42,330 bases of DNA from Desulfococcaceae bacterium (GTDB lineage Bacteria; Desulfobacterota; Desulfobacteria; Desulfobacterales; Desulfosalsimonadaceae), in contig JAQYVU010000035.1 in assembly GCA_030145385.1 (NCBI GenBank), positions 1-42,330 of the forward strand, given 5' to 3'. Positions 20,740 through 41,707 of the stretch are shown in pieces; position 1 is the stretch's first letter; every line of letters starts with the position of its first letter. Under the pieces are notes generated by a model. It made no database searches, was not told where the DNA came from, and saw only the letters and a list, made by a program, of their open reading frames with translations. The translations under genes were made by a program, and so were the position numbers.

Positions 20740-21882
20740 ATGAAAAAAATCTCAATGATATTTATTCTGGTCTTTTTTTCCATGGTGAGTATTTCACTTG
20801 CTGGATCGGTTACTGTCAGCACCTTTGGCCAACTACAGGCAGCATTGACAACAGCTGCAAGCAACAATGAAAATGATATCATCAATATTGCTGCCGGGCT
20901 ACCAATTAGCGTCACGTCCTTGCTGGAATATGATACAAGCGAGAATTATTCTTTAGATATTATCGGTGCCGGCGCCGGCGAGACGGTTCTTGACGGCGGC
21001 GATTTAACTCAGATCATGTATGTCCGTGCACATTCAGGCGTAACAGAGCCTATAACCATAAAGGGAATAACTTTTCAAAATGCCTTCTCTGATTCCGACG
21101 GCGGTGGCCTTTTTTTGCGCAATGATGCCGGTGACGTGACCGTGGAAGGTTGTGAGTTTCTCGACAATAAATTAGATAGCGCTGATGACGGAGGCGGCGC
21201 CTATATACAATCGCACACCTCGATATCAGTTTCCGCATGCTCTTTCATCGGCAATAGCTCTGAGGATGAAGGTGGCGGACTCTATGCTTATGGTAGGGGC
21301 TTAATCACCATAACCTATAGTGTTTTCAGGAGCAATACAGTTGCTGACGCTTATGGTGGCGGTCTATATGTCTTTATAGATGACACCGCGGTTGCAAACA
21401 TCATTAACAATACCATTACCGGCAATACGGCAAATGATTGGGGGGGCGGCCTTCTGTTAGATGGTGGAAATGGAAGCACAACCTTTAATGTATATAACAA
21501 TATCATTTGGGGAAATACTTCAACAAACCAACCTGACTCAGATGATATGTATATTTTTGATGGTGCAGCTGTTGTAATAAATCTTTATAACAATGATATC
21601 GGGCCATATCTAAGGTCCACTGAGCCACCACAAAGCACGCTTAATACCGGCGGCAACATCAATGCTGATCCCATGTTCGATGCGGACTTTCAGCTCATGC
21701 CAAACTCGCCGTGTATCAATAGCGGCCTTGGGGGTGAAGATATGGGGGCATATGAGTACCTGGGTTCTTCAGCTTCAATACCCACGATGAACGAATGGGG
21801 CATGATTATTTTTTCCTTGTTGCTTGGAAGTTTTGCCATTTGGTATATGCGAAAACAAACTCACAGAGGAAAGATGGCATAA
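20740..21882 (+). CDS. Exported beta-helix protein with IPTL-CTERM sorting tail
   Basis: A 380-aa protein. The signal peptide (MKKISMIFILVFFSMVSISLAGS) is likely cleaved near residue 21-22. Residues about 25-330 form a right-handed beta-helix of the polymorphic outer-membrane type, with repeated GGGLF/GGGAY/GGGLY turns and CSFIGNS, VFRSNT, TITGNT strands. The end (347-380) reads IPTMNEWGMII, a hydrophobic helix, then RKQTHRGKMA. This is the tripartite IPTL-CTERM signal recognised by a dedicated exosortase-like system. The protein is therefore expected to be anchored, cut and displayed at the cell surface. No sortase gene is in this window. A terminator follows. Confidence 0.85.
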   Translation: MKKISMIFILVFFSMVSISLAGSVTVSTFGQLQAALTTAASNNENDIINIAAGLPISVTSLLEYDTSENYSLDIIGAGAGETVLDGGDLTQIMYVRAHSGVTEPITIKGITFQNAFSDSDGGGLFLRNDAGDVTVEGCEFLDNKLDSADDGGGAYIQSHTSISVSACSFIGNSSEDEGGGLYAYGRGLITITYSVFRSNTVADAYGGGLYVFIDDTAVANIINNTITGNTANDWGGGLLLDGGNGSTTFNVYNNIIWGNTSTNQPDSDDMYIFDGAAVVINLYNNDIGPYLRSTEPPQSTLNTGGNINADPMFDADFQLMPNSPCINSGLGGEDMGAYEYLGSSASIPTMNEWGMIIFSLLLGSFAIWYMRKQTHRGKMA

Positions 21883-21940: not shown

Positions 21941-22039
21941 AGTCTTTTTAGTTCACTTTGCTAAAAGAGCAAAACGACAATATTCCTTAGAACGAGGGTC
22001 AAACCTTGGATTGTGAATTAAGTCGATCAAATTGACGGT

Positions 22040-22959
22040 TTAATTTTTCATCTTCATCCAGTTTTTTCTTAAATGACTTCTGTGGCTCACAGCGGAAAAG
22101 CTCATTCCAAAAAGCTCCCCGATTTCTTCATTCGTCAGACGGCCAGTATTCCACAACAGATAAACCATTATATCTCGATTCTGTTTATCCGCTCCCCGGA
22201 GACGTTTAGCAGATATGTATCGCTCCAGATCAACTTGAAGGGCTTTTGAAATGCCGGCAAGAAACTCTTCAGGATGAAAATCCCCAGCCAATTGTCTTTG
22301 CTGGGGAAATTCCTTATGCGGAGTGTCCGGCAGAAATCGACGGCGAATTTCTTCCACAAAACTCTGAGCCCCCAGGATCAGACCGTGCCGGAGATCCTCC
22401 AGCAGTCGCTTTTCCTCTGCGGCATAACGCTGCACTTTTTCCCGATACTGCTTCTGGAGATTGGGATCTTTAAAGTAAGACAAAATCAGTTCCGTGGACA
22501 GCCACTCCGGGCGCTTCTTGTCATATGCGTATACCCCGTAACTGCTCCAGGGATAATCTGTCAGGCGTTTTACGATCCCGCCACGTAACGGATTCCGGTG
22601 GATATAGCAGGACAATTGCATGATATAGGCATCACTTTGAACCAGAATGCTTTTATAGCGCCCCTGGAACAGGTGGCCGGTTTATTGTGACGATTATTAA
22701 AACGGCGGGTATAGGTGGTGCCCATCCACTGCATGGCTTTTTGCAGGTTGGCCCGGCGGGTCTGAACCAGCAGGTGATAATAATTCGACATCAGAACATA
22801 GGCGAAAATATCCACCTCAAACCGTTCGGACATCTCGGCAAGGATTTCTAAAAACAGGCGCCGGTCATCATTGGAAAGATAAATATCCTGCCCGTCATTG
22901 CCACGGGACATTAAATGGTAATACGCGCCTTCATATTCAATTCACCATGCCCTGCTCAT
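22040..22959 (-). pseudogene. REP-associated tyrosine transposase (RAYT, Y1 family), inactivated
   Basis: Reconstructed, this is a single-strand DNA transposase of about 300 aa. The N-terminus (MSRAW, IEYEGAYYHLMSRGND) starts at 22959. The Y1 core has LMSNYYHLLVQT and TYTRRFNNRHNK. GHLFQGRYKSILV and YIHRNPLRGG follow, and the C-terminus ends with a helix-turn-helix (LTNEEIGELFGMSFSAVSHR). Three lesions are visible. There is TGA for Arg at codon 6 (22942-22944). A one-base loss in the A run near 22681-22683 splits the gene into two frames. The first His of the HUH motif is Tyr (NYYH, codon 22780-22782). RAYTs mobilise REP palindromes; such palindromes lie just upstream. Confidence 0.9.
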
Positions 22960-22984: not shown

Positions 22985-23028
22985 CCCGGTGTCAATACTT
23001 AATTCATAATTCAAGCTTTGACCCCGGG
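22985..23028. repeat. REP-like palindrome, copy 1
   Basis: Arms CCCGGTGTCAA and TTTGACCCCGGG pair with one mismatch. The AT-rich centre contains, on the minus strand, the tandem heptad TGAATTATGAATTA. It sits 26 bp upstream of the RAYT start codon, the usual place for the cognate REP. Confidence 0.85.
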
Positions 23029-23257: not shown

Positions 23258-23301
23258 CCCGGGTGTCAGTATTTAATTCATAATTCAAGCTTTGACCCCG
23301 G
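23258..23301. repeat. REP-like palindrome, copy 2
   Basis: Same architecture as copy 1: CCCGGGTGTCA, the AT-rich centre TATTTAATTCATAATTCAA, then TTTGACCCCGG, in the same orientation. The right part overlaps the last codons of the membrane-protein gene at 23285 and supplies its stop codon. A second small hairpin GGGTCAAG/CTTGACCCC follows at 23322-23344. Confidence 0.85.
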
Positions 23302-23764
23302 ATTTTAACACCTCTTTCAATGGGTCAAGGGCGGACTTGACCCCTATACGTTCTTTAATCAAATATATGAGCTTCTTATAATTATTCATACTTTTTATAA
23401 GCAGTAATTTTTTATTAGTAATCAGAACTATATAAATAAAATCAACAGGGACTATAAATAAAGGTTTCTTTATTTGCGCTATTTCTTTCCAATTAACTTT
23501 TTTATGAGTTATCCAAAAATGTTTTAATTCGAGGCCCTCATCGTATACTTCAATAGAATAATAGGTTATTTTCAATAAAAACCAACTAATTATCAAACAC
23601 GATAAAAGGATCGCTATGCATTCAACTTTTCTTTCGATAAAAAGTCCTTTTGAAATAATTAAAAATACATAGCTAACAGGCAATCGTAAAATTGATAAAT
23701 AGCATATGGTAAATATTATTTTGAACCACATTGGAAAAGTCACGCTGAATAAATATTTTTTCAT
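23285..23764 (-). CDS. Small membrane protein, candidate Rhs immunity
   Basis: A 159-aa, visibly AT-rich gene. Two hydrophobic hairpin regions (about 10-36 and 50-68) are followed by a short soluble domain (YSIEVYDEGLELKHFWITHKKVNWKEIAQIKK), which resembles a bacterial PH-like domain. It lies directly downstream of the Rhs cassette at 23917, where immunity genes are normally found, hence the suggestion. The last residues (KSALDPLKEVLKSGVKA) are encoded by REP-like DNA, so the native C-terminus was probably lost or extended. I do not recognise a named family. Confidence 0.6.
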   Translation of the reverse strand: MKKYLFSVTFPMWFKIIFTICYLSILRLPVSYVFLIISKGLFIERKVECIAILLSCLIISWFLLKITYYSIEVYDEGLELKHFWITHKKVNWKEIAQIKKPLFIVPVDFIYIVLITNKKLLLIKSMNNYKKLIYLIKERIGVKSALDPLKEVLKSGVKA

Positions 23765-23916: not shown

Positions 23917-24985
23917 TTAATCACCACAGGGGGCATCGTTATTATGAAGTAACTCAGTTCCCAAATGGTCAATTTTACCTTTCATGTCATCTTCAATTTC
24001 TTGTATTCCTTTTTCAAGCTTTTCGAATTTTTGTTCTGTTTCGATAAGCTCTTTGGCCATTTCTTTTTCGAGAGCTAACATTCGATCTTCATAAGTCAAT
24101 ATATCACTTGGACTCAACATCTCACCAGTCATTCCAGACGCTGCACCTGCAACTGCTCCACCGAGTGGCCCGGTTAATGCTCCCCCAACAGCTCCCGCAA
24201 CAAAACCAGATGTTGCCCCCGAAACTATACCTGAGGGGCCGCCAGTAACCGCGCCGGTAACCGCACCAGCCACTGCGCCAGTAACCGCACCAGAAACTGT
24301 TCCTGCAAGCAACCCCCACGGATCAATCCAATTAACCGGATCATTTAGGCAATATCCATATAAATCTGTATCTCCGCCAGCAAATCCGATGGGATCTTTA
24401 GCCGTCCATCTCCCGGTTTCCGGATCAAAATCCCGATATCCGAACCTTACAAGACCGGTATCGCTGTCATGCAACCCGCCGGCAAACCCGAACGGAACCT
24501 CAAAGGCCGGATTGTTGTCATTAATGATGCTGCCAAAACTGTCATAGTCAATTCTTTTTATCACATTACCGGAGCCATCTGCAACTATTCTCAAGGAGCC
24601 GACCTGGTCATAGGTGAGATAATAAACCACACCGCTCTTAGTCATGGCATACGGCATTCTGCTGTCCGCATACTCAAATCGAGTCTTCAGGTTGTTTGAT
24701 CCGTCATATACGGCAAGCAGCCGGGTCAACCCCTGCCAGAGATATTTTTCCACTATCGCACCGTTAACTTTTCGCGATTCGCCTGCCCTGAGGGTCATGG
24801 TCATATTCAGCAAAATCACCTGAAGGCAACTCCACGCTTAAAAGTTCGCCTCGAGAAGAGTAATCATAAGTGGTTACATCCGATCCATCGGTTCTGGACA
24901 GCAAAAATAACCGCCATCCGGATAATTTACGTCAATCAACCGGTTTTGGGTATCAATGCTCAGCTGCGTCCCGAAGCACCGGTTC
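23917..24985 (-). pseudogene. Displaced Rhs C-terminal cassette with Gly-zipper tip
   Basis: The continuous frame 23917-24819 encodes the end of an RHS core (GAIVEKYLWQGLTRLLAVYD onward, through YDQVGSLRIVADGSGNV and DPETGRWTAKDPIGFAGG) nearly identical to the large Rhs protein. It then diverges after CLNDPVN into a different tip: WIDPWGLL, a glycine-zipper-like segment rich in AGAVTGA, and a charged coiled coil (LEKEMAKELIETEQKFEKLEK). Upstream, 24820-24908 continues the RHS homology in another frame after a 2-bp loss, and 24909-24985 jumps to a more N-terminal part of the Rhs gene. There is no own start signal, so it is probably a silent donor cassette. The tip's activity is unknown. Confidence 0.8.
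24331..24908 (-). repeat. RHS-core direct repeat, copy in the displaced cassette
   Basis: About 578 bp closely matching 28220-28800 of the large Rhs gene in the same orientation. The match starts at the shared CTTAAT-free boundary ATTAACCGGATCATTTAGGC and ends at GACAGCAAAAAT. Such homology lets a displaced tip recombine onto the main gene. Confidence 0.85.
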
Positions 24986-24994
24986 CTTTCTCGT

Positions 24995-25035
24995 CGGGTG
25001 TCAATATTTAATTCATAATTCAAGCTTTGACCCCG
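24995..25035. repeat. REP-like palindrome, copy 3
   Basis: CGGGTGTCAA and TTTGACCCCG arms with the same TATTTAATTCATAATTCAA centre. It starts about ten bases beyond the end of recognisable Rhs homology, marking the edge of the displaced cassette. Same orientation as copies 1 and 2. Confidence 0.85.
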
Positions 25036-26283: not shown

Positions 26284-27018
26284 TTAAAATTTCGTTTTGC
26301 CACATGAATTATGAACGCATATTTTGCCTTTACCTACAAAATATGTATGAAAGTTCTCAACCTCAAAATTGTATACGGTCTGTTTTTTACTGGTTTCGGT
26401 ATTGCTTGAGACTGAAATCCATTCTCCGCTGTATGTCAGAACATTCTCCCCGGCAGATAACGACTTAGCCTCGATCCATCCTTTGTCTTTTACCATAAAA
26501 GGATGTTCGTTAGTAACATATAACACGTCACTATCACCATTAAAACTTAATTTTCGGATATATTTATCTGGCGTTACAAATGTTTTAGTAACTTTTTGGG
26601 GAGTTATTTCTCCTGTTTCTTCATTTCGAGATAAAACTAAATCGCCAGATTTAATTTCTTCAATCTTTTTAAATCCTTCAGGCGTAAATATTTCAGTTCC
26701 TGCGGCAAAACAGACAGGCTTATCATCGCCTTCCGCCTCGTCAGTTTTCCATCCTTCCATAATATCATTGACACCCCATGCTGTCATTGCCACTCCGCCC
26801 ATCCAAAATTTCAGGCCTTCTCCAATGGCATGAATACCCATAGGATTCAGATGCGAAATCTCTTCTACTCCTATTGAAATTAATCCTGCTCCTATTCCTA
26901 TCGAAATAACTCCTCCAGCTGTTTTCGCAGCACCAGAACCGATTTTAGCCCAATTTTTCAATCCTAATGGGTCAACAAAATTAACCGGATCATTTAGGCA
27001 AATGATCCGGTTAGGCAC
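26284..27018 (-). CDS. Displaced Rhs tip with HINT autoprocessing domain, toxin missing
   Basis: A 244-aa fragment. It enters Rhs homology at CLNDPVNFVDPLGL, followed by a glycine-rich hydrophobic linker (GGVISIGIGAGLISIG). A pretoxin HINT domain follows: Cys 103 in VCFAAGTEIFTPEGF, the TxxH motif in VTNEHPFMV, and the splice-like end VYNFEVENFHTYFVG..CVHNSC. HINT domains cut themselves to release a downstream toxin, but here only SCGKTKF follows Asn 237 before the stop. The toxin is therefore absent or decayed. Codons 1-6 derive from an inverted duplication (26982-27013); GTG 27018 may not be a functional start. Confidence 0.8.
   Translation of the reverse strand: MPNRIICLNDPVNFVDPLGLKNWAKIGSGAAKTAGGVISIGIGAGLISIGVEEISHLNPMGIHAIGEGLKFWMGGVAMTAWGVNDIMEGWKTDEAEGDDKPVCFAAGTEIFTPEGFKKIEEIKSGDLVLSRNEETGEITPQKVTKTFVTPDKYIRKLSFNGDSDVLYVTNEHPFMVKDKGWIEAKSLSAGENVLTYSGEWISVSSNTETSKKQTVYNFEVENFHTYFVGKGKICVHNSCGKTKF
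26982..27013. repeat. Perfect inverted duplication at the HINT cassette edge
   Basis: TAACCGGATCATTT (26982-26995) and AAATGATCCGGTTA (27000-27013) form a perfect 14-bp palindrome with a 4-nt AGGC loop. The left arm is the conserved Rhs CLNDPVN coding sequence that marks tip boundaries at 24331 and 28220. The right arm is its inverted copy. Confidence 0.9.
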
Positions 27019-27269: not shown

Positions 27270-27863
27270 TCAAGCCCCGGTAGCGTTTTCTTTTTTTTTT
27301 AATTTTTCTATACACAGATCGATACTTTCTTTTATTTCATTTCTTAAAGGCTTCAATTTATCTGCGTGCTTGTACGCCTCCAAAGCAAGAATGTATGAGC
27401 CTTGCATGTAATAAGCATACCCTAATCTAACAAATGGAACATACTCATCTGGGTAATATTTTATATAATTATTTAAGAATATTATTGCATCTCCAAAACA
27501 CTCCAATCTAATTAAGCTATCGCCTAAATAATAGTTCTCCTTGTCTTTTTCAGAAAGCGTTTTTCCATCGCTTAATATTTCCTTTACCTTAATATATTCA
27601 CCAAGCTTAAAATACACATTTGAGAGTAAAAGCCTAACATGCTTTGTATCTATACCTGAATTTAGAAGGGTTTCTAAGGTTCTTTTTGCTTCCCCATATT
27701 TTTTATATGAAATATATAAATTGCTTAGCACCCATAATATATCTTTATCATTTTGCCGTTTTTCCAATTTCTTTTTGCAAACATTCTCAATTAGCGAAAA
27801 AGAATAAAATGGCGGTAAAGCTGAACGAATAGCCAATTCTAATAATAAACTCTTTTTTCCCAT
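27270..27863 (-). CDS. TPR protein, candidate immunity for the large Rhs tip
   Basis: A 197-aa helical protein built of tetratricopeptide-like repeats. Recognisable units include WVLSNLYISYKKYGEAKRTLETLL, LLSNVYFKLGEYIKVKEIL, and FVRLGYAYYMQGSYILALEAYKHA, which is a canonical TPR. It is AT-rich compared with the Rhs gene. The chosen ATG 27863 overlaps the Rhs stop as TAATG, with AAGGATGG upstream, so translation is probably coupled. An upstream in-frame ATG at 27875 has no spaced ribosome site. Position and coupling fit an immunity protein, but TPR immunity is inferred, not proven. Confidence 0.75.
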   Translation of the reverse strand: MGKKSLLLELAIRSALPPFYSFSLIENVCKKKLEKRQNDKDILWVLSNLYISYKKYGEAKRTLETLLNSGIDTKHVRLLLSNVYFKLGEYIKVKEILSDGKTLSEKDKENYYLGDSLIRLECFGDAIIFLNNYIKYYPDEYVPFVRLGYAYYMQGSYILALEAYKHADKLKPLRNEIKESIDLCIEKLKKKENATGA

Positions 27864-30800
27864 TAATGTGGCCATCCTTTAATTAATTTTATAATTTTTC
27901 CTGTTGTATATAAAATTTTCTTCCAAAAAGGGTCCTCAGGATCTGGTGGTTGATCTGGATCATATTCAGGGCCTTGCCATGTAGTCTCTGTCTCACATGC
28001 TTTTGTATCATTCTGAATGTTCTGATCCCTTTCATTTGCCCAGTCAATCCATTCCCTTGGATCGGTAGGATCATTAGGTCCATCAAGCCCTGCTTCTAAA
28101 GCATTTTGTGCCGTATAACCTAACGCACCAATAATTGCTAAATCTGCTATGGCATGGACTGCTGTATACCCAGCAGTCATGGTTAATACAAAAACAATCC
28201 TTCCATCAGGATCAAAATTATTAACCGGATCATTTAGGCAATATCCATACAGATCGGTATCCCCACCGGCAAACCCAATGGGGTCTTTTGCTGTCCACCT
28301 TCCTGTTTCCGGATCATAATCCCGATACCCGAACCTGACAAGGCCGGTATCCCGGTCATGCAACCCGCCGGCAAACCCGAACGGAACTTCAAACGTCGGA
28401 TCTGTATCAGCGATAATGTTGCCGAAAGTGTCATAGTCAATTCTTTTTACCACATTACCGGAACCATCTGCAACTATTCTCAAAGAACCGACCTGATCAT
28501 AGGTGAGGTAATAAACCACTCCGCTCTTGGTCATGGCATACGGCATTCTGCTGTCCGCATACTCAAATCGAGTCACCAAATTATTTGATCCGTCATATAC
28601 AGCCAGCAGCCGGGTCAATCCCTGCCAGAGATATTTTTCCACTATCGCACCGTTAATTTTTTTGGCGATCCGCCTGCCCTGAGGATCATGGACATATTCA
28701 ACATAGCCTCCTGAGGACAGCCCCACACTTAAAAGCTCACCCTGCGAGGAATAATCATATGATGTTACATCCGAACCTTCGGTTTTGGACAGCAAAAATC
28801 CATCCGGATCATACGCGTATTCCACATTGCCGGCAGTCAGCAGATGGTCCTCTTGAGAATATACCAGGCTTCGTCCGGCAACACCCCTTTGTGCATTCAT
28901 TTCATAAATACGCGAGCCATTGGCATTGTACTGGTATTCTTCCACAAAAGAACCGTCTTGGGTCACGGTTAACAAACGTCCCATTTCATCATAGGTATAA
29001 ACAAAATCAGAATTTGTCCCGCCAACGGTTTCGGTCTTTGCTTTAATCCGTCCGGTATTATCCATAGTGAGATTCCATGCGGACAGACTTTGCCCGCTCA
29101 CAGAAACAGACTGCGTTCCAATTTCGCCATAACCGTTAAAGGTGCGCGACAGAGCAAAAGAACTGCTTGTCACGGATTCCGGCAGCCCGTTTGCGACGTT
29201 TCGGATGATCGTGAACCGCCCGGCGCTGGTCAGGAGATTGTCCATGTCATACGTAAAGACTTCTGTTCCGCCGGCATAAGAGAATGAATCAATATCAAAG
29301 AAGTTGTTGTACGTCATGGCAACACTGGTATTGAGTGTGCCGGACAGGGTTTTTCCGGTCAGCAGGTTGCCGTCATAATCATAGGCAATCCCTTCAGACC
29401 CCTTTGTAATGGTCGCAATTTTACCGCCACAGGGGTAGTAGGAATAATCAATATTGCCTTCCGGTGTCTGTACCTGCATCAGCCTGCCGGGATAATCGAT
29501 ATCATAAATATTATTGATCTCTTTTGCCGACGGAAAGATCGTTTTTGTCAGGCGCCGGTCGCGGTCATAGACATATGAATAGGACCCGCTTAACGGCATC
29601 TGGTAAGAAGTGTTGCGGTCCACACTGTTGTATTCAAAACCATGGTCCACGGACAAGGGATTGGTCAAAACGGTCATGTTGCCGTTTTTATCGTAATCAA
29701 ACCAGGCAGACGTATTGTCCGGCCTGTGCATACTGGTCGCCCGGCCCATTGGATCATAACTGAAAGTGGTGGTCCTGTTTTCCGGATCAGTGACCGAGGC
29801 CAGGTTGCCGTCAGCATCATAGCCAAATGTCGATTTCCGGGTGCTGGCGGTCACATCGACCAGCCGGCCTCGTGTGTCATACGTATAGGCCGTGTCAAAC
29901 AGGCCCGGCGTGCTTGTCCAGGTGGTCAGCCCGGTATCCGGATCAAAACCGGATGAACTGATTCTGCCTTCAGGAGTGGTCAGGGTTTTCTGGGTCTGGG
30001 GTTTGTCGATTAAATATGTAAATGCATTACCATTAACAGTAAGTGTTTTAGTGGTTTTATCAAGAATTCGGTCGTTGTCGATATCTTCATACAACCGGTC
30101 TTCCGTAACGGTTTTTGAAAGCCCTGAAGGCTGTGACAGGGTTCTGCTTTTAATATATTTAAACCGATACCCCGGATCATAGGCATACTCGAAAAGCATA
30201 TCCATGCCGCAGGAAAGAGACTTGTTGACGGTCAAACCGTTTTCTGATTTCCGATAATCAGTAATGCCGCCGGAAGGGCCGGTAATCAGGGAGGTATATT
30301 CACCTGATGGCAATGTCCGGTCAAGGTATACTGTTTGCTGACCTTCGGCGGTTGTCATTTCCGTGCGGATGGTGCCGTCCGCATTGTTTGTCACGTCATA
30401 GCACCAGTGTCCGCCTTCAGCGTCCGTGGCATCCGTAATTTTCCCATTCGGGTCAAAAACATGTTCATATCGATTGCCATTCGGGTCAACTTTTGCCGTC
30501 TCCAAACCACCGGAGGAATACTCAAATGAATAATAACCGCCATCCGGATACCGCACTTCTTTTAACCGGTTCTGAAAATCAACAGTCAGCTCCGTCCGTA
30601 TCCCGTCCGGTGAAATGATCGCCGTCGGCACCCCATTAAAATCCCGCTCAATGGTTGTTCTGTTCATTCCCCGATCATATATATAGACAAGACGATCATT
30701 GGAATCATATGAAAAGTATCTGAGAAGTGCGCCGGTATTTGAATCTTGGGTGGCTGTATGCTGATTTCCGTTTTTAATGATATACGTCTCTCCTGAAGGA

Positions 30801-33800
30801 TCACTGTATGCCTGGCCGTCTCCGCTGACCAGACTGCCGATGCCTGAACCGCCGGTATTCAGTACGCAGGCAATATAACCATCGTATATTGCAGAAAAAT
30901 ATACCTGGCTGCTCGGACCGACTGCTATGCCCAGAGGATATGGGACTCGTCCTTCTTTTGGCGGCACACCGGTTTTAATGCCGATTGACCCGTCACCAGC
31001 CAGGGTATTGATGATTCCCAGAACATTTACCTTACGGATTTTATGATTTGCAGTATCAGCAATATAAATATTGCCTTGTTCATCAAGCGCCAGAGCAGCA
31101 GGGCTGTTGAGGCTCGTATCTGTTGCCGGGACACCTTCGGCAGCGGGACCGGCAATGCCGTTTCCGGCCACAGTGGTGATTATGCCGCTGTTATCTATCT
31201 TACGAATACAGCTATTGAATGAATCGGCAATAAAAATATTCCCTTTGTTGTCTGTTTCCACATCTTTTGGGCAAAACAGCGCAGCCATCGTCGCCGGACC
31301 ACCATCGCCGTAATAGTACGCGCCGCCGTTTCCGGCAATTGTTGTGATTATAGCGTTCGGGCTTATTTTACGAATACGGTTGTGCTCGGTATCAGCAACA
31401 TACACATTCCCTGAACTGTCAACAGCCACGCCCTGTGGATAGTATAGTGAAGCACTTGTGGCAGGCCCGTCGTCACCGGAAAACATAATTGAACCGTTTC
31501 CGGCGATGGTTGTGATAATGCCGTCTGAAGTTACTTTTCGAATGCGATGATTTAAGGTATCCGCAATAAAGAGGTTGCCTGAATCATCAAACATAATCCC
31601 TCTGGGTCCGTTCAGCTGCGCCGACATTGCCGGTCCGGTATCCCCGCCATAGCCGGCAGTCCCATTTCCAGCCACCGTTGTAATAATGCCGTCCGTATCG
31701 ACTTTTCGAATACGGTGATTGTTTGTATCTGCAATATATACATTGCCTTCACCATCAACGGCAACACCTGTCGGGTTATCCAGCTGGGCCTGGGCTGCCG
31801 GGCCATCATCACCTGCATAACCAGGTGTTATAATGCCTGCAAACCGGTTTAAGAGATTCGGGGAATAAATATCCGTGCTGCCATCACCTTTATAGATTCT
31901 TGTCAGGTCGTGCGCGTAAAACCGGTGATGGGGCGAAAGGGTCCATCCTTCGGCAACAACATCCGCATAATCCCGCTCCACGATAACCTGCTCATAGCGC
32001 CAGATAGCGACTTCCTGTCTTGCCTGTATTTCAGTAACGTTGGGTCCTACCTGGGCAAAAGCCTGGGCAAATTCACCGGGGCTGTAGTAAACAGCATCAT
32101 AAACAAACCCGACCTGTATTCCGGCTTGAACCGGACCGGCAAATAAAGCATTGCGGAAATCCGTCCCTTCCCAGGTAAATACCGCCACCTGGTCAGGCAA
32201 AGGATCAAGTGTCTGTTGAAATTTTTGCCCGGCAATGTTTAAAGACACCTCTATTCTTTTCAGACTTGCCGGAACCGTCGTTCCGCTGGCCGGGACCGTA
32301 ATGATGGTTTTGTTGTCAGCGCCGACGCGGTTGCTGGCATAGTGAAGGGTTATATCGGTTCCGGGAATCGTTATGTCTTCGTGGAATACCCGGCTTCGAT
32401 CCATGATAAATGACCCCGTGCTTGTCTGACAATCCTCCTCCCCTTCGCCTGTACCTGTTTTGCCTTCCGCATTCGGGTCGATAGCATCCTTGTCAGGACC
32501 ATAAGGCCAGTTGCAGTCATAAGGGGTAAAATGGGTGATTTCCGATCGCCAGAATGATGTTCCAGGCACATAAAGACTTGGATCTTCCAATCCCAGGGCT
32601 TCATCAGCTGTCGTGCCATCACCGTTTAAATCATCGGCAAGATTATCACCATCCGCATCTATTGCATCTACAATGCCGTCACCATTTGTATCCAGCAGTT
32701 TGACGACAACGCCGTTATCTGAAGGCACCCAGACGCCTTTGTCGCGATCATAATAACCGATGGGTACGATACTGCCGACATCAAAACCCAGAAAATTGTC
32801 TACCCAGACAACCACCGGTTTTTGAAACTGTACCCGCTGGGCTTCATCAAAAGCCAATTCCGAGCAATACGTATATGCAGAAGTCGGCGGCAGCACCGAA
32901 GGCATGGCTTCAATAGTAAAAAATTCCGTGGCACGAACCGTACCGGAATTCAGTTCACGGATTGTATTGCCGTTTGCATCCACTTCATATGCCCTGTTGT
33001 CGCCGGTAAAAATCAGCGTACAGGAACGGGTGCCGAATTCATCTGAAACCGGTGTGCTGATATGGCTCATTACGGTGGCGGGGTTGCCGTCAAAAGCAAT
33101 TGTTGTGGATTTTGTATCTACGGGGATCATGACAATCGGATCGATGATTGCAAAACCGTTCCATGGGACATCGACCGAACGATGGGAAGTAATCAATCCG
33201 TCAAGGGTGTAAACCGCTGTCATGGAGCTGCCGCCTTCCACCGGCAACGAGAATGAACCCTCGCTGTCTGTGATGGCCGTGCCGTATTCCAGGTGGTGCA
33301 AGATACCCACATTCACCCCTTGTATCGGGGAGCCTTGTGTGTCAAGAATCGTTCCGTTGATCAAGGAAAACCGCTCAGCATCATACGTTTGCAACGTGGC
33401 GTCCGGCGGGATCAGGTCTTCATATTGTGATCCAAAAGAGCCTTCCGGCAGGGGATCGGTCTGCGACGCGACGATAACCTTCACCTGGGCGGTTGCACTG
33501 CCTCCAGCACCGGTGGCCGTGATAATGTAAGTCGTGGTCCGCTCCGGCGAAATGATTTCGGAACCGCTCAGGGCAATCGCACCGATATCCGGAGAGATAA
33601 CGCAGGTATCGGCATATTCCGAGTACCATGAGAGTTCGGTGGTTTCACCGGATGCAATCGTTGCCGGCGTTGCGGATATGCTCACGATCGGCAGAGGCGG
33701 CGCGGATACCGTTATTGTAACGCTGTCTGTTGCCGCTCCTTCCGGGCCGATAACCGTTATTGTGTATGTTGTGGTCTCTGCAGGTGAAACCGGCAGCGAT

Positions 33801-35557
33801 CCACTCAGGGATACGGTTCCGACGCCCTGGTCAATTTCAGCATCCGTCACATTGGCAGAATCCCAGGAAAGCACGGAGGATTCGCCTTCAAAGATGGATT
33901 CCGGATTTGCCGTTAAAGTAACTACAGGTACCGGAATTGGGGAGACGGTTATAGTTACGCTGCTGGTTGTTGTGCCGCCGGGGCCTGTGGCGGTAAGAGC
34001 GTATGTGGTTGTTGCTGTCGGAGTTACTTCAACAGAGCCATTTAATGCAACAGATCCAATATTTGGCAAAATTTCACATGTGTCAGCATCTGTGGACGTC
34101 CATGTCAATATAACGGAATCCCCTTCAAAGATATCCGTACTTGAAGCATTCAGGGTAACAACAGGCTGAGGAATAATAGAAACCGTCACTGTTGCCTGGT
34201 CGGAAACCGACCCTCCGGGACCCGTTGCTGTGATGGTATAGGTCGTGGTTTCTGCGGGAGTTACAGTATACGATCCTGCTGCATCGACCGGGCCGATGCC
34301 CGGTTCAATGCTTATGCTATCGGCATTTTCCGCGTTCCAGGACAATGTTGAGATTCCGACGCTTAAGATCGTTTCAGGCGTTGCCGTGATAGAGACTGCG
34401 GGCACAGGAATCGGGGTGACGGTCACGGTAACACTGCTGGTTGCCGTACCGCCGTATCCTGTCGCCGTTATTGTATATGTTGTGGTTACTGTCGGGGCTA
34501 CATCAACAGACCCATTTAATGCACCAGATTCAATATTCGGGGTGATGACACAGGTATCTGCATGGCTGGATGTCCATGACAATATAACGGATTCGCCTTC
34601 AAAAATATCTGTTTGAGAAGCGTCCAGCGTAACGACCGGTTGCGGGGCAACAGAAACATTTAGCATCACTTGCTTGGAAACAGCGCCTTCAGCACCCGTG
34701 GCTGTAATGGTGTAGGTTGTCGTTTCTGTTGGTGACACAGTTAAAGATCCCGTCAAGGCGACATTGCCGATGCCATTATCAATGGAGACTGTCTCTGCTG
34801 AAGCCGAAGACCATGTCAGCGTTGCGCTTTGCCCGACAAAGATGGATACCGGTGAACAGTTAAAGGAGACGGATGTTCCTTGCTGAACGATTTCAACAGA
34901 AAGATAGGTGCCCGGTTTGCTGTTCAGTTCGGTGGTGATCGTATTCGTATCTGAAAGATTAAGATATGATACAAGAATGAAATCGTCTGACTTGAAATCA
35001 TCTGTTTCAAAAAGCAGCTCGCCGTTTATGACAATCGAACCGCTGGTGACCCTGCTGCTGCCGTCTTTATTGCCGTTTTTGACCATAAGGAATCCATCAC
35101 CGGGCGTTGCGGTAAAAGAATCCGTATATATATCCGTTTTGCCTTTGGTCCTGATATACTGACCTGGCGAAAATACCGCTGAACCGGAGGTTTGAATTTC
35201 GATTGTCAGAAACGAATCCGGGGCGCTGGTAAGTTCAACTTTAAGGGTGTTTGTATTATTTGCCTGTATCGGAGCCATTAACATGGCTTCGTTTTGTTCA
35301 AAATCATTCGGGTCAAATATCAGTTCATCATTTAAATAAATATAAGCGCTGGAAACCCTGTTCGTTTTGTCATCATTGCCGTTTTTGACAAACAGATAAT
35401 ATTCTCCAGGGACCGCATCAAAGGATTCGGTATAGAACTCTGCTTCACCGGTTGTTCGGGTGTAAGCGCTGGGGCCAAACAACGTTGCTGCGGAAACTGT
35501 GGCAGCCAGAAAGAATGTGATGCCGATAACAATCAGACAAACCAGATGCTTTTTCAT
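27863..35557 (-). CDS. Giant Rhs/YD-repeat protein with Ig-like repeats and NHL propeller
   Basis: A 2564-aa exported protein. A signal peptide (cut near 23) is followed by two related ~100-aa domains (about 24-225) and six Ig/PKD-like repeats of about 79 aa (about 227-694; TTTYTITATG hallmark). Next come a transthyretin-like carboxypeptidase-regulatory domain (about 735-800), Asp-rich calcium-type repeats (DTNGDGIVDAIDADGDN, about 956) and a six-bladed NHL propeller (about 1240-1570; ADTNNHRIRKV, TTVAGNG). YD repeats (about 1600-2420) end in the RHS core DPIGFAGGDTDLYGYCLNDPVN. The last ~120 residues are a variable tip (LTMTAGYTAVHAIADLAIIGALGY, then acidic). Such shells enclose a toxin tip. 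The tip has no recognised toxin motif. AAGGTG precedes the ATG. Confidence 0.92.
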   Translation of the reverse strand: MKKHLVCLIVIGITFFLAATVSAATLFGPSAYTRTTGEAEFYTESFDAVPGEYYLFVKNGNDDKTNRVSSAYIYLNDELIFDPNDFEQNEAMLMAPIQANNTNTLKVELTSAPDSFLTIEIQTSGSAVFSPGQYIRTKGKTDIYTDSFTATPGDGFLMVKNGNKDGSSRVTSGSIVINGELLFETDDFKSDDFILVSYLNLSDTNTITTELNSKPGTYLSVEIVQQGTSVSFNCSPVSIFVGQSATLTWSSASAETVSIDNGIGNVALTGSLTVSPTETTTYTITATGAEGAVSKQVMLNVSVAPQPVVTLDASQTDIFEGESVILSWTSSHADTCVITPNIESGALNGSVDVAPTVTTTYTITATGYGGTATSSVTVTVTPIPVPAVSITATPETILSVGISTLSWNAENADSISIEPGIGPVDAAGSYTVTPAETTTYTITATGPGGSVSDQATVTVSIIPQPVVTLNASSTDIFEGDSVILTWTSTDADTCEILPNIGSVALNGSVEVTPTATTTYALTATGPGGTTTSSVTITVSPIPVPVVTLTANPESIFEGESSVLSWDSANVTDAEIDQGVGTVSLSGSLPVSPAETTTYTITVIGPEGAATDSVTITVSAPPLPIVSISATPATIASGETTELSWYSEYADTCVISPDIGAIALSGSEIISPERTTTYIITATGAGGSATAQVKVIVASQTDPLPEGSFGSQYEDLIPPDATLQTYDAERFSLINGTILDTQGSPIQGVNVGILHHLEYGTAITDSEGSFSLPVEGGSSMTAVYTLDGLITSHRSVDVPWNGFAIIDPIVMIPVDTKSTTIAFDGNPATVMSHISTPVSDEFGTRSCTLIFTGDNRAYEVDANGNTIRELNSGTVRATEFFTIEAMPSVLPPTSAYTYCSELAFDEAQRVQFQKPVVVWVDNFLGFDVGSIVPIGYYDRDKGVWVPSDNGVVVKLLDTNGDGIVDAIDADGDNLADDLNGDGTTADEALGLEDPSLYVPGTSFWRSEITHFTPYDCNWPYGPDKDAIDPNAEGKTGTGEGEEDCQTSTGSFIMDRSRVFHEDITIPGTDITLHYASNRVGADNKTIITVPASGTTVPASLKRIEVSLNIAGQKFQQTLDPLPDQVAVFTWEGTDFRNALFAGPVQAGIQVGFVYDAVYYSPGEFAQAFAQVGPNVTEIQARQEVAIWRYEQVIVERDYADVVAEGWTLSPHHRFYAHDLTRIYKGDGSTDIYSPNLLNRFAGIITPGYAGDDGPAAQAQLDNPTGVAVDGEGNVYIADTNNHRIRKVDTDGIITTVAGNGTAGYGGDTGPAMSAQLNGPRGIMFDDSGNLFIADTLNHRIRKVTSDGIITTIAGNGSIMFSGDDGPATSASLYYPQGVAVDSSGNVYVADTEHNRIRKISPNAIITTIAGNGGAYYYGDGGPATMAALFCPKDVETDNKGNIFIADSFNSCIRKIDNSGIITTVAGNGIAGPAAEGVPATDTSLNSPAALALDEQGNIYIADTANHKIRKVNVLGIINTLAGDGSIGIKTGVPPKEGRVPYPLGIAVGPSSQVYFSAIYDGYIACVLNTGGSGIGSLVSGDGQAYSDPSGETYIIKNGNQHTATQDSNTGALLRYFSYDSNDRLVYIYDRGMNRTTIERDFNGVPTAIISPDGIRTELTVDFQNRLKEVRYPDGGYYSFEYSSGGLETAKVDPNGNRYEHVFDPNGKITDATDAEGGHWCYDVTNNADGTIRTEMTTAEGQQTVYLDRTLPSGEYTSLITGPSGGITDYRKSENGLTVNKSLSCGMDMLFEYAYDPGYRFKYIKSRTLSQPSGLSKTVTEDRLYEDIDNDRILDKTTKTLTVNGNAFTYLIDKPQTQKTLTTPEGRISSSGFDPDTGLTTWTSTPGLFDTAYTYDTRGRLVDVTASTRKSTFGYDADGNLASVTDPENRTTTFSYDPMGRATSMHRPDNTSAWFDYDKNGNMTVLTNPLSVDHGFEYNSVDRNTSYQMPLSGSYSYVYDRDRRLTKTIFPSAKEINNIYDIDYPGRLMQVQTPEGNIDYSYYPCGGKIATITKGSEGIAYDYDGNLLTGKTLSGTLNTSVAMTYNNFFDIDSFSYAGGTEVFTYDMDNLLTSAGRFTIIRNVANGLPESVTSSSFALSRTFNGYGEIGTQSVSVSGQSLSAWNLTMDNTGRIKAKTETVGGTNSDFVYTYDEMGRLLTVTQDGSFVEEYQYNANGSRIYEMNAQRGVAGRSLVYSQEDHLLTAGNVEYAYDPDGFLLSKTEGSDVTSYDYSSQGELLSVGLSSGGYVEYVHDPQGRRIAKKINGAIVEKYLWQGLTRLLAVYDGSNNLVTRFEYADSRMPYAMTKSGVVYYLTYDQVGSLRIVADGSGNVVKRIDYDTFGNIIADTDPTFEVPFGFAGGLHDRDTGLVRFGYRDYDPETGRWTAKDPIGFAGGDTDLYGYCLNDPVNNFDPDGRIVFVLTMTAGYTAVHAIADLAIIGALGYTAQNALEAGLDGPNDPTDPREWIDWANERDQNIQNDTKACETETTWQGPEYDPDQPPDPEDPFWKKILYTTGKIIKLIKGWPH
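28220..28800 (-). repeat. RHS-core direct repeat, copy in the large gene
   Basis: About 580 bp closely matching 24331-24908 in the same orientation. It encodes SDVTSYDYSSQGELLS through CLNDPVN. The substitutions are mostly silent or conservative, so the two copies are recently related or kept alike by gene conversion. Confidence 0.85.
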
Positions 35558-40532: not shown

Positions 40533-41426
40533 TCATGCTGCCATTCGTATCAGATCTTTTCCCCAATAGATCTCCACAGGGGTTTTGTCTTCAAGCGATT
40601 GATGAGGGCGCTCAATATTATAAAAATCAAAATACTGCTTCAGTCCCTTAATCAGCTCTTTGACATTTTGATACTCATGCAGGTATATCTCTTCATACTT
40701 CACAGATCGCCACAATCGTTCTATAAAAATATTATCCATTGCCCGGCCCTTGCCGTCCATGCTGATCCGGATACCCTGCTCCAATAATACACCTGTAAAA
40801 TCTTTTCCTGTATACTGGGCTCCCTGATCCGTATTAAAAATATCCGGTCTGCCATATCGACGGATGGCACTCTCAAGGGCATTCACACAAAAATCGTCAT
40901 CCATGGTCACCGAAACTTCCCAGGACAGCACATGGCGGCTGTGCCAGTCCATAATCGCAGTCAAATAGACGAAGCCGCCTGAAAGCCGGATATATGTGAT
41001 ATCCGAACACCAAACCATATTCGGGCGATTGATATTCATTCTCTTCAGAAGATAAGGATAAATTTTATGTTCCCTGCGCGGCGAACTTGTATTTGGCTTC
41101 GGTGCAATGGATTGTATCCCCATTTTACGCATCAAGCGCTGTACGCGTTTCCGGTTCACATGATGCCCCTGACGTTTCAGGTAAATCCGTATCTTCCGGC
41201 TGCCATAAAATGGATGGCGCGTATATTCTTCATCAATCAGTCGCATCAGTTTCAAATTCTCCTGACTTATTCCCGACGGATCGCAACCTGACCGATAGTA
41301 ACTGGATCTGGGCAGACTCAACAATTCACATTGCCGGACGATGCTTAAGTCTGAAAATCCAGGCTGAATACAAGTCCGTTTTTCAGATAAGCTCATCTCT
41401 TGTACCCGACCGTTTTTTTTAACCAC
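40533..41426 (-). CDS. IS3-family transposase OrfB (DDE integrase domain)
   Basis: A 297-aa integrase-like product. An HTH_21-type region ([30 protein letters not shown]) precedes the catalytic core with Asp 142 (WCSDITYI), Asp 200 (NTDQGAQYT) and Glu 236 ([13 protein letters not shown]). This gives the D-D-(35)E spacing of IS3 elements. It is normally made as an OrfAB fusion by -1 frameshifting. It is intact and therefore potentially active. Confidence 0.93.
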
Positions 41427-41707
41427 TCCAGTTCGACCTGCAACTTTCCGATTTGCTGGTAGAGACGATCCTTTTCTGCTTCATAGGTTTCAATGCCACG
41501 ATCCTTGCTCCGGGAAAAAAGTTCCGCCGAATCTTTCAATAACGTCTTTTTCCACTGACCGATCTGATTGGAATGGACCCCATATTCTGTTGCCAGTTCG
41601 CCAATCGTCTTCTGCCCCTTTATTGCATCCAGTGCCACGCGGGCTTTGAATTCTTTGGTGAAGGTCTTTCTCTTTTTCAATTGCTCCTCCTTTTTAGTCA
41701 GGAGCAC
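41393..41707 (-). CDS. IS3-family OrfA with -1 frameshift site
   Basis: A 104-aa protein with an N-terminal helix-turn-helix (EFKARVALDAIKGQKTIGELATEYGVHSNQIGQWKK) and a C-terminal leucine-zipper-like helix. It overlaps orfB by 34 bp. A run of eight A (complement of 41413-41420) lies in the overlap, and in the orfA frame gives the slippery heptamer A-AAA-AAA, which shifts ribosomes -1 into orfB. Confidence 0.92.
   Translation of the reverse strand: MLLTKKEEQLKKRKTFTKEFKARVALDAIKGQKTIGELATEYGVHSNQIGQWKKTLLKDSAELFSRSKDRGIETYEAEKDRLYQQIGKLQVELEWLKKTVGYKR

What the first reader, a model, noticed from the sequence alone, without database searches (positions are those of the whole stretch)
27863..35557. 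Teneurin-like domain order in a bacterial Rhs protein
The order transthyretin-like domain, an intervening beta region, NHL propeller, YD shell, RHS core, C-terminal tip is the order of animal teneurins. Here it is preceded by six Ig-like repeats and Asp-rich calcium-type repeats and by a Sec signal peptide. It is therefore a relative of the proposed bacterial ancestors of teneurins, probably an anchored or secreted surface protein and not a type VI-delivered one (no PAAR or VgrG-linked N-terminus is seen).
Basis: partly seen in the sequence, partly recalled or inferred. Interest (0 to 1): 0.65.

Follow-up and report, generated by a model that had tools for sequence, protein, structure and literature searches.

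The report
Bacterial teneurin-like polymorphic toxin
A sulfate-reducer-group bacterium encodes a giant secreted protein built like the animal nerve-cell receptor teneurin; it belongs to a recently published family of bacterial toxins that carry a variable tip inside a protein shell, here with spare tips stored next to the gene.

Summary
Window 27863-35557, minus strand, encodes one 2564-residue protein: Sec signal peptide, two ~100-residue beta-sandwich repeats, six Ig-like repeats, teneurin-type TTR domain, TIP domain, FN-plug, NHL propeller, YD shell, RHS core and a 112-residue tip. [quoted passage not shown] Corrections: the Asp-rich stretch follows the TTR domain, inside TIP; the "intervening region" is TIP plus FN-plug.

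Added here: autoprotease residues keep the solved protein's spacing. Relatives of the tip in two other TLPs are each followed by a related TPR gene, like the one downstream here (candidate immunity). Two orphan tips lie further downstream. A plug cysteine is present in 81 of 81 ordinary linkers and all 51 complete tips have a cysteine, so the published plug-tip disulfide may be general; but 33 of 38 plug-less control tips also have one, so this stays a hypothesis. In 4 of 85 relatives a HINT domain sits in the plug linker, where the solved TLP is cleaved. Toxicity, cleavage and delivery are untested; the NHL docking angle is not confirmed.

The parts
27863..35557 (-). TLP gene, 2564 aa
35486..35557 (-). 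Sec signal peptide (res. 1-24), signal peptidase I type
   Evidence: read by eye; coordinates
34865..35485 (-). two ~100-aa beta-sandwich repeats (res. 25-231); weak matches to jelly-roll domains
   Evidence: AF2 pLDDT 87.6, pTM 0.63; Foldseek E from 2e-6, TM at most 0.33 among the 50 rows shown
33458..34873 (-). six Ig-like repeats (res. ~229-700), period 79
33122..33391 (-). teneurin TTR-like domain (res. 723-812)
   Evidence: PF25020
32495..33067 (-). TIP domain (res. 831-1021) with Asp-rich calcium-type stretch 956-981 (metal binding untested)
32411..32431 (-). plug linker C1043-QTSTG-S1049; aligns with BiTLP C719 and cleavage site G723/S724
31838..32425 (-). FN-plug (res. ~1045-1240)
   Evidence: (sub-threshold)
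30833..31837 (-). NHL propeller (res. ~1241-1575), six blades counted by eye in the model
28463..30790 (-). YD shell (res. ~1590-2365)
28202..28462 (-). RHS core with predicted autoprotease R2412, D2425, D2449 (DPIG...DPDG)
   Evidence: spacing equal to BiTLP R2103/D2116/D2140
27866..28201 (-). polymorphic tip (res. 2453-2564), single Cys C2521, basic C-terminal end
27270..27875 (-). TPR protein, 201 aa, start overlaps the TLP stop; candidate immunity gene
26284..27018 (-). orphan tip O2: ~33 bp of RHS-core end, then a hydrophobic stretch and a pretoxin HINT domain
   Evidence: PF07591 94.9 bits
25331..26209 (-). 292-aa protein after O2, hydrophobic by eye; candidate immunity gene
   Evidence: no match in Pfam, PHROGs or PADLOC
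23917..24907 (-). orphan tip O3: RHS-core fragment in two frames (85.7% DNA identity over 587 bp to the main core) plus a glycine-rich tip (Pfam Gly-zipper match below cut-off)
23285..23764 (-). 159-aa protein after O3, hydrophobic by eye; candidate immunity gene
   Evidence: no match in Pfam, PHROGs or PADLOC

Best explanation
It is a Sec-exported polymorphic toxin of the bacterial teneurin-like (TLP) family. Shown by sequence: signal peptide, adhesin-type N-terminal arm, FN-plug, NHL, YD shell, RHS core and variable tip in one chain. Inferred from the solved relative BiTLP: the shell encloses the tip; the core cuts the chain just after DPDG (res. 2449-2452) using D2425, D2449 and R2412; the plug is cut between G1048 and S1049; and C1043 may be bonded to C2521, so that the cut tip stays attached to the N-terminal arm. 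Inferred from sequence character alone: this tip acts on membranes. The adjoining TPR protein is the likely immunity partner, and the two downstream orphan tips are a reserve that can replace the working tip by recombination in the conserved core. Delivery and the trigger of release are unknown.
For: Family. Autoprotease spacing (-13/0/+24) equal to that published for BiTLP. Tip with TPR gene: relatives of the tip in L169 (43%, E 4e-19) and, more weakly, L135 are each followed by a TPR relative (35%, E 6e-34; 24%, E 1e-11); no other ORF of the window and 94 loci scanned matches the TPR protein better than E 0.018. Tip swapping: L045 and L046 have 95% identical superfolds and unrelated tips; DNA identity falls from 53 of 60 to 19 of 60 at the core end. 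Of 28 pairs with superfold identity of 60% or more, 2 have related tips. Orphans: 10 of 42 TLP loci with at least 2.5 kb downstream carry an orphan core ORF, 20 in all.
Against: No toxicity, cleavage, export, disulfide or immunity was tested. No membrane anchor found. The L135 tip is not related to this tip at BLAST E 1e-3, only in a three-row alignment. Tip cysteines are also frequent in Rhs proteins without a plug: 33 of 38 have at least one. 32 of 42 TLP loci show no orphan core ORF in the stretch held. The model's NHL-shell arrangement is not confirmed in detail (rmsd 8.4 A).
Confidence: 0.78

Rival explanations
1. It is mainly a cell-cell adhesin or recognition protein, as in animals, and the tip is vestigial.
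For: Six Ig repeats and two beta-sandwich repeats; the 2026 paper leaves a communication role open and reports that three of the nine CTDs it chose inhibited E. coli, so six did not in that assay.
Against: Intact autoprotease residues; tip family kept in three TLPs with a neighbouring TPR gene; tips exchanged among close superfolds.
Confidence: 0.12
2. The conserved plug cysteine is catalytic or structural for N-terminal cleavage and does not tether the tip.
For: A Cys lies 1-11 residues before the plug model in 81 of 81 ordinary linkers; 4 relatives have a HINT domain (a self-processing type, recalled) there instead; tips of Rhs proteins without a plug also have cysteines in 33 of 38, and in the last six residues in 11 of 24 length-matched ones against 24 of 51 TLPs.
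Against: The BiTLP structure shows C719 bonded to C2216; 41 of 51 TLP tips have exactly one Cys against 9 of 24 length-matched controls, Fisher p 5e-4.
Confidence: 0.25
3. It is a type VI or Tc-type Rhs toxin that has acquired an NHL domain.
For: Shared YD shell and core; T6SS Rhs and Tc structures appear in the fold search.
Against: Signal peptide; no PAAR/VgrG match; no PAAR in the assembly; in the 50 rows shown, teneurins and TLP reach TM 0.60-0.68 against 0.43 or less for T6SS Rhs and 0.25 or less for Tc; NHL lies before a single-chain shell.
Confidence: 0.02

Closest known systems
Bacterial teneurin-like protein of Bacillus inaquosorum (BiTLP; PDB 9IFO, 9PT5; PMC13018210)
   Same: TTR, TIP, FN-plug, NHL, YD shell, RHS core, short tip; both cleavage sites and both bonded cysteines have counterparts here
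   Different: Gram-negative host group; different N-terminal arm; different tip; TPR candidate immunity gene; orphan tips downstream
Animal teneurins (6FB3, 6FAY and others)
   Same: TTR, FN-plug, NHL, YD shell in the same order; E down to 6e-88
   Different: No EGF match; TIP present; no Tox-GHH match in the tip; autoprotease motif intact
Orphan rhs-CT/rhsI and cdiA-CT/cdiI modules (PMC3150448 passages read; PMC3967940 abstract read)
   Same: Core fragments with tip and neighbour gene downstream of the main gene
   Different: Here beside a TLP; expression and function untested
T6SS Rhs effectors (RhsA, Tse5 and others)
   Same: Shell, C-terminal autoprotease, N-terminal plug and second cleavage (RhsA: PMC8765631 passages read)
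   Different: No PAAR or VgrG link; FN-plug instead of their plug

Membership tests
[quoted passage not shown]
   Pfam FN-plug itself is below its cut-off (19.4 of 27.8 bits); the plug rests on the match to 9IFO
Bacterial TLP | TIP domain between TTR and FN-plug (96% of TLPs in the paper) | tested here: met
Bacterial TLP | RHS core with paired DPxG motifs about 20 residues apart and conserved Arg | tested here: met
   D2425, D2449, R2412
Bacterial TLP | Short variable C-terminal domain, about 15 kDa on average | tested here: met
   112 aa; 51 tips of relatives fall into 38 clusters
Bacterial TLP | Immunity gene immediately downstream | tested here: inconclusive
   A TPR gene overlaps the stop and recurs after related tips; neutralisation not testable here
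Bacterial TLP | Tip is toxic and is enclosed in the shell | not testable with these tools
   needs expression and structure
Animal teneurin | EGF repeats | tested here: not met
   no EGF family among Pfam matches at E 1 or better
Animal teneurin | Single transmembrane helix and intracellular domain | not tested
   no predictor run; by eye the N-terminal hydrophobic stretch is a signal peptide
Animal teneurin | Tox-GHH C-terminus | tested here: not met
   no Pfam match in 2453-2564
T6SS Rhs effector | PAAR/prePAAR or VgrG N-terminus | tested here: not met
   no PF05488 match in the assembly
Tc toxin B-C | Shell split over two subunits, propeller inserted within the YD repeats | tested here: not met
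   single ORF, NHL upstream of the shell

The most novel reading that the evidence does not exclude
TLPs are modular two-part toxins in which any tip, whatever its fold, is held to the N-terminal adhesin arm by a plug-tip disulfide, so that self-cleaved tip and arm travel together and separate only on reduction in the target; the plug cut is important enough that in some lineages a HINT self-cleaving domain has replaced it; and the locus is kept versatile by a reserve of orphan tips that recombine at the core.
Probability: 0.4. Interest if true: 0.55.

Novelty: new member of a known kind. Interest (0 to 1): 0.38.

Why it matters
It adds a well-preserved member, from a Desulfobacterales genus, to the family held to have given rise to animal teneurins. 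The set gathered around it raises two testable points that I did not find in the parts of the 2026 paper's main text that I read or searched: whether the plug-tip disulfide is a family rule, and why a HINT domain sits at the plug cleavage site in some members. In this order the plug is found in 51 of 389 genomes searched and in the phylum in 18 of 395; the paper reports under 3% of species per phylum outside Myxococcota, but with three domain models and a stricter cut-off, so the figures are not directly comparable.

Tried and rejected
Cysteine rule as a TLP-specific signature: rejected in its strong form. All 51 complete TLP tips have a Cys (41 exactly one, 10 more than one, 24 with one in the last six residues), but 33 of 38 control Rhs tips without a plug also do (10 exactly one, 12 in the last six). 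On the 24 controls of 60-200 aa, 22 have a Cys (Fisher p 0.10 against 51 of 51), 11 have one in the last six residues (much as in TLPs), and only 'exactly one' differs (9 of 24 against 41 of 51, p 5e-4). The within-family comparison is thin: in two plug-less Rhs proteins (L206, L219) the Cys of related glycine-rich tips aligns with K, G or V, but such alignments also shift between TLP-type tips. The controls come from 40 regions that I chose for long open frames from the capped match list; three regions (L202, L204, L205) gave no counted ORF and one (L184) gave two.

Rows dropped: of 87 ORFs with a plug, 2 had no TIP hit and were left out of the linker count (85: 81 ordinary, 4 HINT); 36 lacked a core or shell hit or a closed 3' end and were left out of the tip count. 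The 85 are not all independent (some are near-identical or from one genome). In four ordinary linkers the last Cys stands directly before the plug model, where others have the conserved Ser. The orphan count sees only core-bearing ORFs; fragments as short as the one before O2 are missed.

(class) drew nearly the same genomes as (order) and is not a second sample. The N-terminal repeats gave only weak PDB matches, so no ligand is claimed. Rfam: nothing in the window at gathering scores. PADLOC gave one weak NHL-region match, ignored. The superfold model stops at 2222 because of the 1200-residue limit; the tether geometry could not be modelled. No tree with animal sequences was built. PMC3482391 (polymorphic toxins) was seen in passages only and is not leaned on.
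Full report
What is there. Its genome, unnamed, is of the same genus as G001, whose contig is identical to PCSG01000116.1, titled a Desulfobacterales MAG. Pfam and NCBIfam find TTR_TEN1-4, TEN_NHL, TEN_YD-shell and Rhs_assc_core above their cut-offs and FN-plug below its own. phmmer against the PDB puts two bacterial teneurin-like entries first (9PT5, 9IFO, E 4e-295 and 4e-293), then 16 animal teneurin sequences (E 6e-88 to 3e-61). In the FN-plug region the alignment with 9IFO places C1043 at C719 and G1048-S1049 at the published cleavage site G723-S724.

Known family. The class was described in 2018 as FN-plug-bearing bacterial YD proteins (PMC5851990, passages read), for one protein already with Ig and TTR domains and an extra ~180-residue domain between TTR and FN-plug. 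In 2026 (PMC13018210; abstract and outline, the whole Results, Discussion and the HMM-search method read; passages; supplements not readable here) BiTLP was solved with its cleaved tip inside the shell, three of nine chosen tips inhibited E. coli, and an immunity protein was shown for one. That paper includes a Desulfosudis oleivorans tip. So the teneurin-like order is confirmed and already explained.

Structure check. An AlphaFold2 model of residues 1023-2222, from an alignment of 49 rows, has mean pLDDT 87.4 and pTM 0.72. Foldseek, 50 rows shown: 9IFO TM 0.68, animal teneurins 0.60-0.68, T6SS Rhs 0.43 or less, Tc 0.25 or less. VIA-align: 9IFO Z 46.4, 1142 residues aligned, rmsd 8.4 A; 6FB3 Z 36.8, 1118 residues, rmsd 11.8 A. 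All modelled domains fall in one alignment in the right order.

Distribution. A model of the FN-plug (15 sequences) was found at E 1e-3 in 18 of 395 genomes of the phylum and 51 of 389 of the order. I collected 87 plug-bearing ORFs, among them four from other groups by record title (L008-L011).

Tip and neighbour. The tip (2453-2564) has no Pfam match. It is related to the tip of L169 (43% over 91 residues, E 4e-19) and, by a three-row alignment only, to that of L135; the Cys, the WKK and several Pro and Asp positions are shared. In all three cases the next gene encodes a ~200-aa TPR protein, and the other two are related to the window's (35%, E 6e-34; 24%, E 1e-11); the next best ORF in the 95 sequences scanned has E 0.018. 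This is the best evidence that the TPR gene is the partner of this tip. That the tip is membrane-active is my inference from its hydrophobic start and basic end.

Tip exchange and orphans. Among 41 TLPs compared, 28 pairs have superfold identity of 60% or more and only 2 of these have related tips. L045 and L046 are 95% identical in the superfold; DNA identity per 60 bases is 52-59 before the core end and 14-19 after it. In the window, orphan O3 shares 85.7% DNA identity over 587 bp with the main core, an orphan on another contig of the assembly 87.4% over 293 bp, while L042, the nearest superfold (58%) among those with a complete core, has 71.9% over 570 bp; the closer relative L007/G001 ends before the core. 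Orphan core ORFs follow 10 of 42 TLP genes with at least 2.5 kb of downstream sequence held, 20 in total, six after L159. In L170 tip and next gene lie in a repeat of at least 2,158 bp (it runs to the end of the stretch fetched), 99.95% identical, 8 kb apart, starting 38 bases before the core end. Orphan modules are known in Rhs and CDI loci (PMC3150448 passages; PMC3967940 abstract). The listings showed no title or abstract opening that reports them for TLPs, and PMC13018210 has no 'orphan' in its main text; the other papers' texts were not read for this.

Cysteine pair. The 14 residues before the plug model hold a Cys in 81 of 81 ordinary linkers; the background for 14-residue stretches downstream of the plug is 385 of 7112 (5.4%). 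The model begins after this Cys, so this is not circular. All 51 complete tips hold a Cys; with the tips' own Cys content about 42 would be expected; 41 have exactly one against 15 expected, and 24 have one in the last six residues against 4 expected. Controls weaken this: 33 of 38 plug-less Rhs tips have a Cys and 12 of 38 have one in the last six residues; in the 24 of similar length only 'exactly one' differs (9 of 24 against 41 of 51, p 5e-4). The plug Cys is solid; its pairing with the tip in this protein is inference from BiTLP. The main text of PMC13018210 mentions the bond for BiTLP only.

HINT in the plug. Four of 85 TLPs (L058, L162, L166, L168) carry a pretoxin HINT domain (69-92 bits) between TIP and plug, in place of the usual Cys-to-Ser linker. 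The main text of the paper mentions HINT only for tips, and the listings showed nothing on HINT within a teneurin plug. It fits the idea that cutting here matters, but splicing instead of cutting is possible, and activity is untested.

Verdict. A well-preserved new member of a known family. The value lies in the added points on tethering, HINT and tip reserve, each still a hypothesis.

Noticed in passing
L058, L162, L166, L168 (between TIP and FN-plug): Pretoxin HINT domain in the linker where BiTLP is cleaved, 4 of 85 TLPs; the HINT of L058 is 42% identical to that of window orphan tip O2.
   Followed up: partly
L170 9332-11489 and 17338-19495: Tip and next gene in a 99.95% identical direct repeat 8 kb apart, second copy running to the end of the stretch fetched; ORFs between look like two tyrosine recombinases and a primase (by eye).
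   Followed up: partly
L049 (G041:C241), 8.7 kb: Five orphan RHS-core fragments in tandem, four running into tips of their own that do not match one another at E 1e-3; another genome, G455, has 44 core matches.
   Followed up: partly
L051, L052, L053: The N-terminal arm (78% and ~53% identical) also occurs on a 480-aa ORF and on large Rhs proteins in which no plug was found (L053 is cut at its 3' end), so the arm too seems to be exchanged.
   Followed up: no
window 22999-23023, 23273-23297, 25008-25032: A 25-bp sequence in three exact copies on the minus strand, found nowhere else in the assembly at up to 2 mismatches; a fourth copy with 3 mismatches lies at 21997-22021, plus strand.
   Followed up: partly
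window 22040-22911 and 40533-41707: Transposase-like ORFs by eye: a REP-type one split into two overlapping frames, and an IS3-type pair (names recalled, not tested).
   Followed up: no
window 20740-21882: Secreted beta-helix-like protein ending in IPTMNEWG plus hydrophobic helix and basic tail, resembling an IPTL-CTERM sorting signal (recalled, not tested).
   Followed up: no
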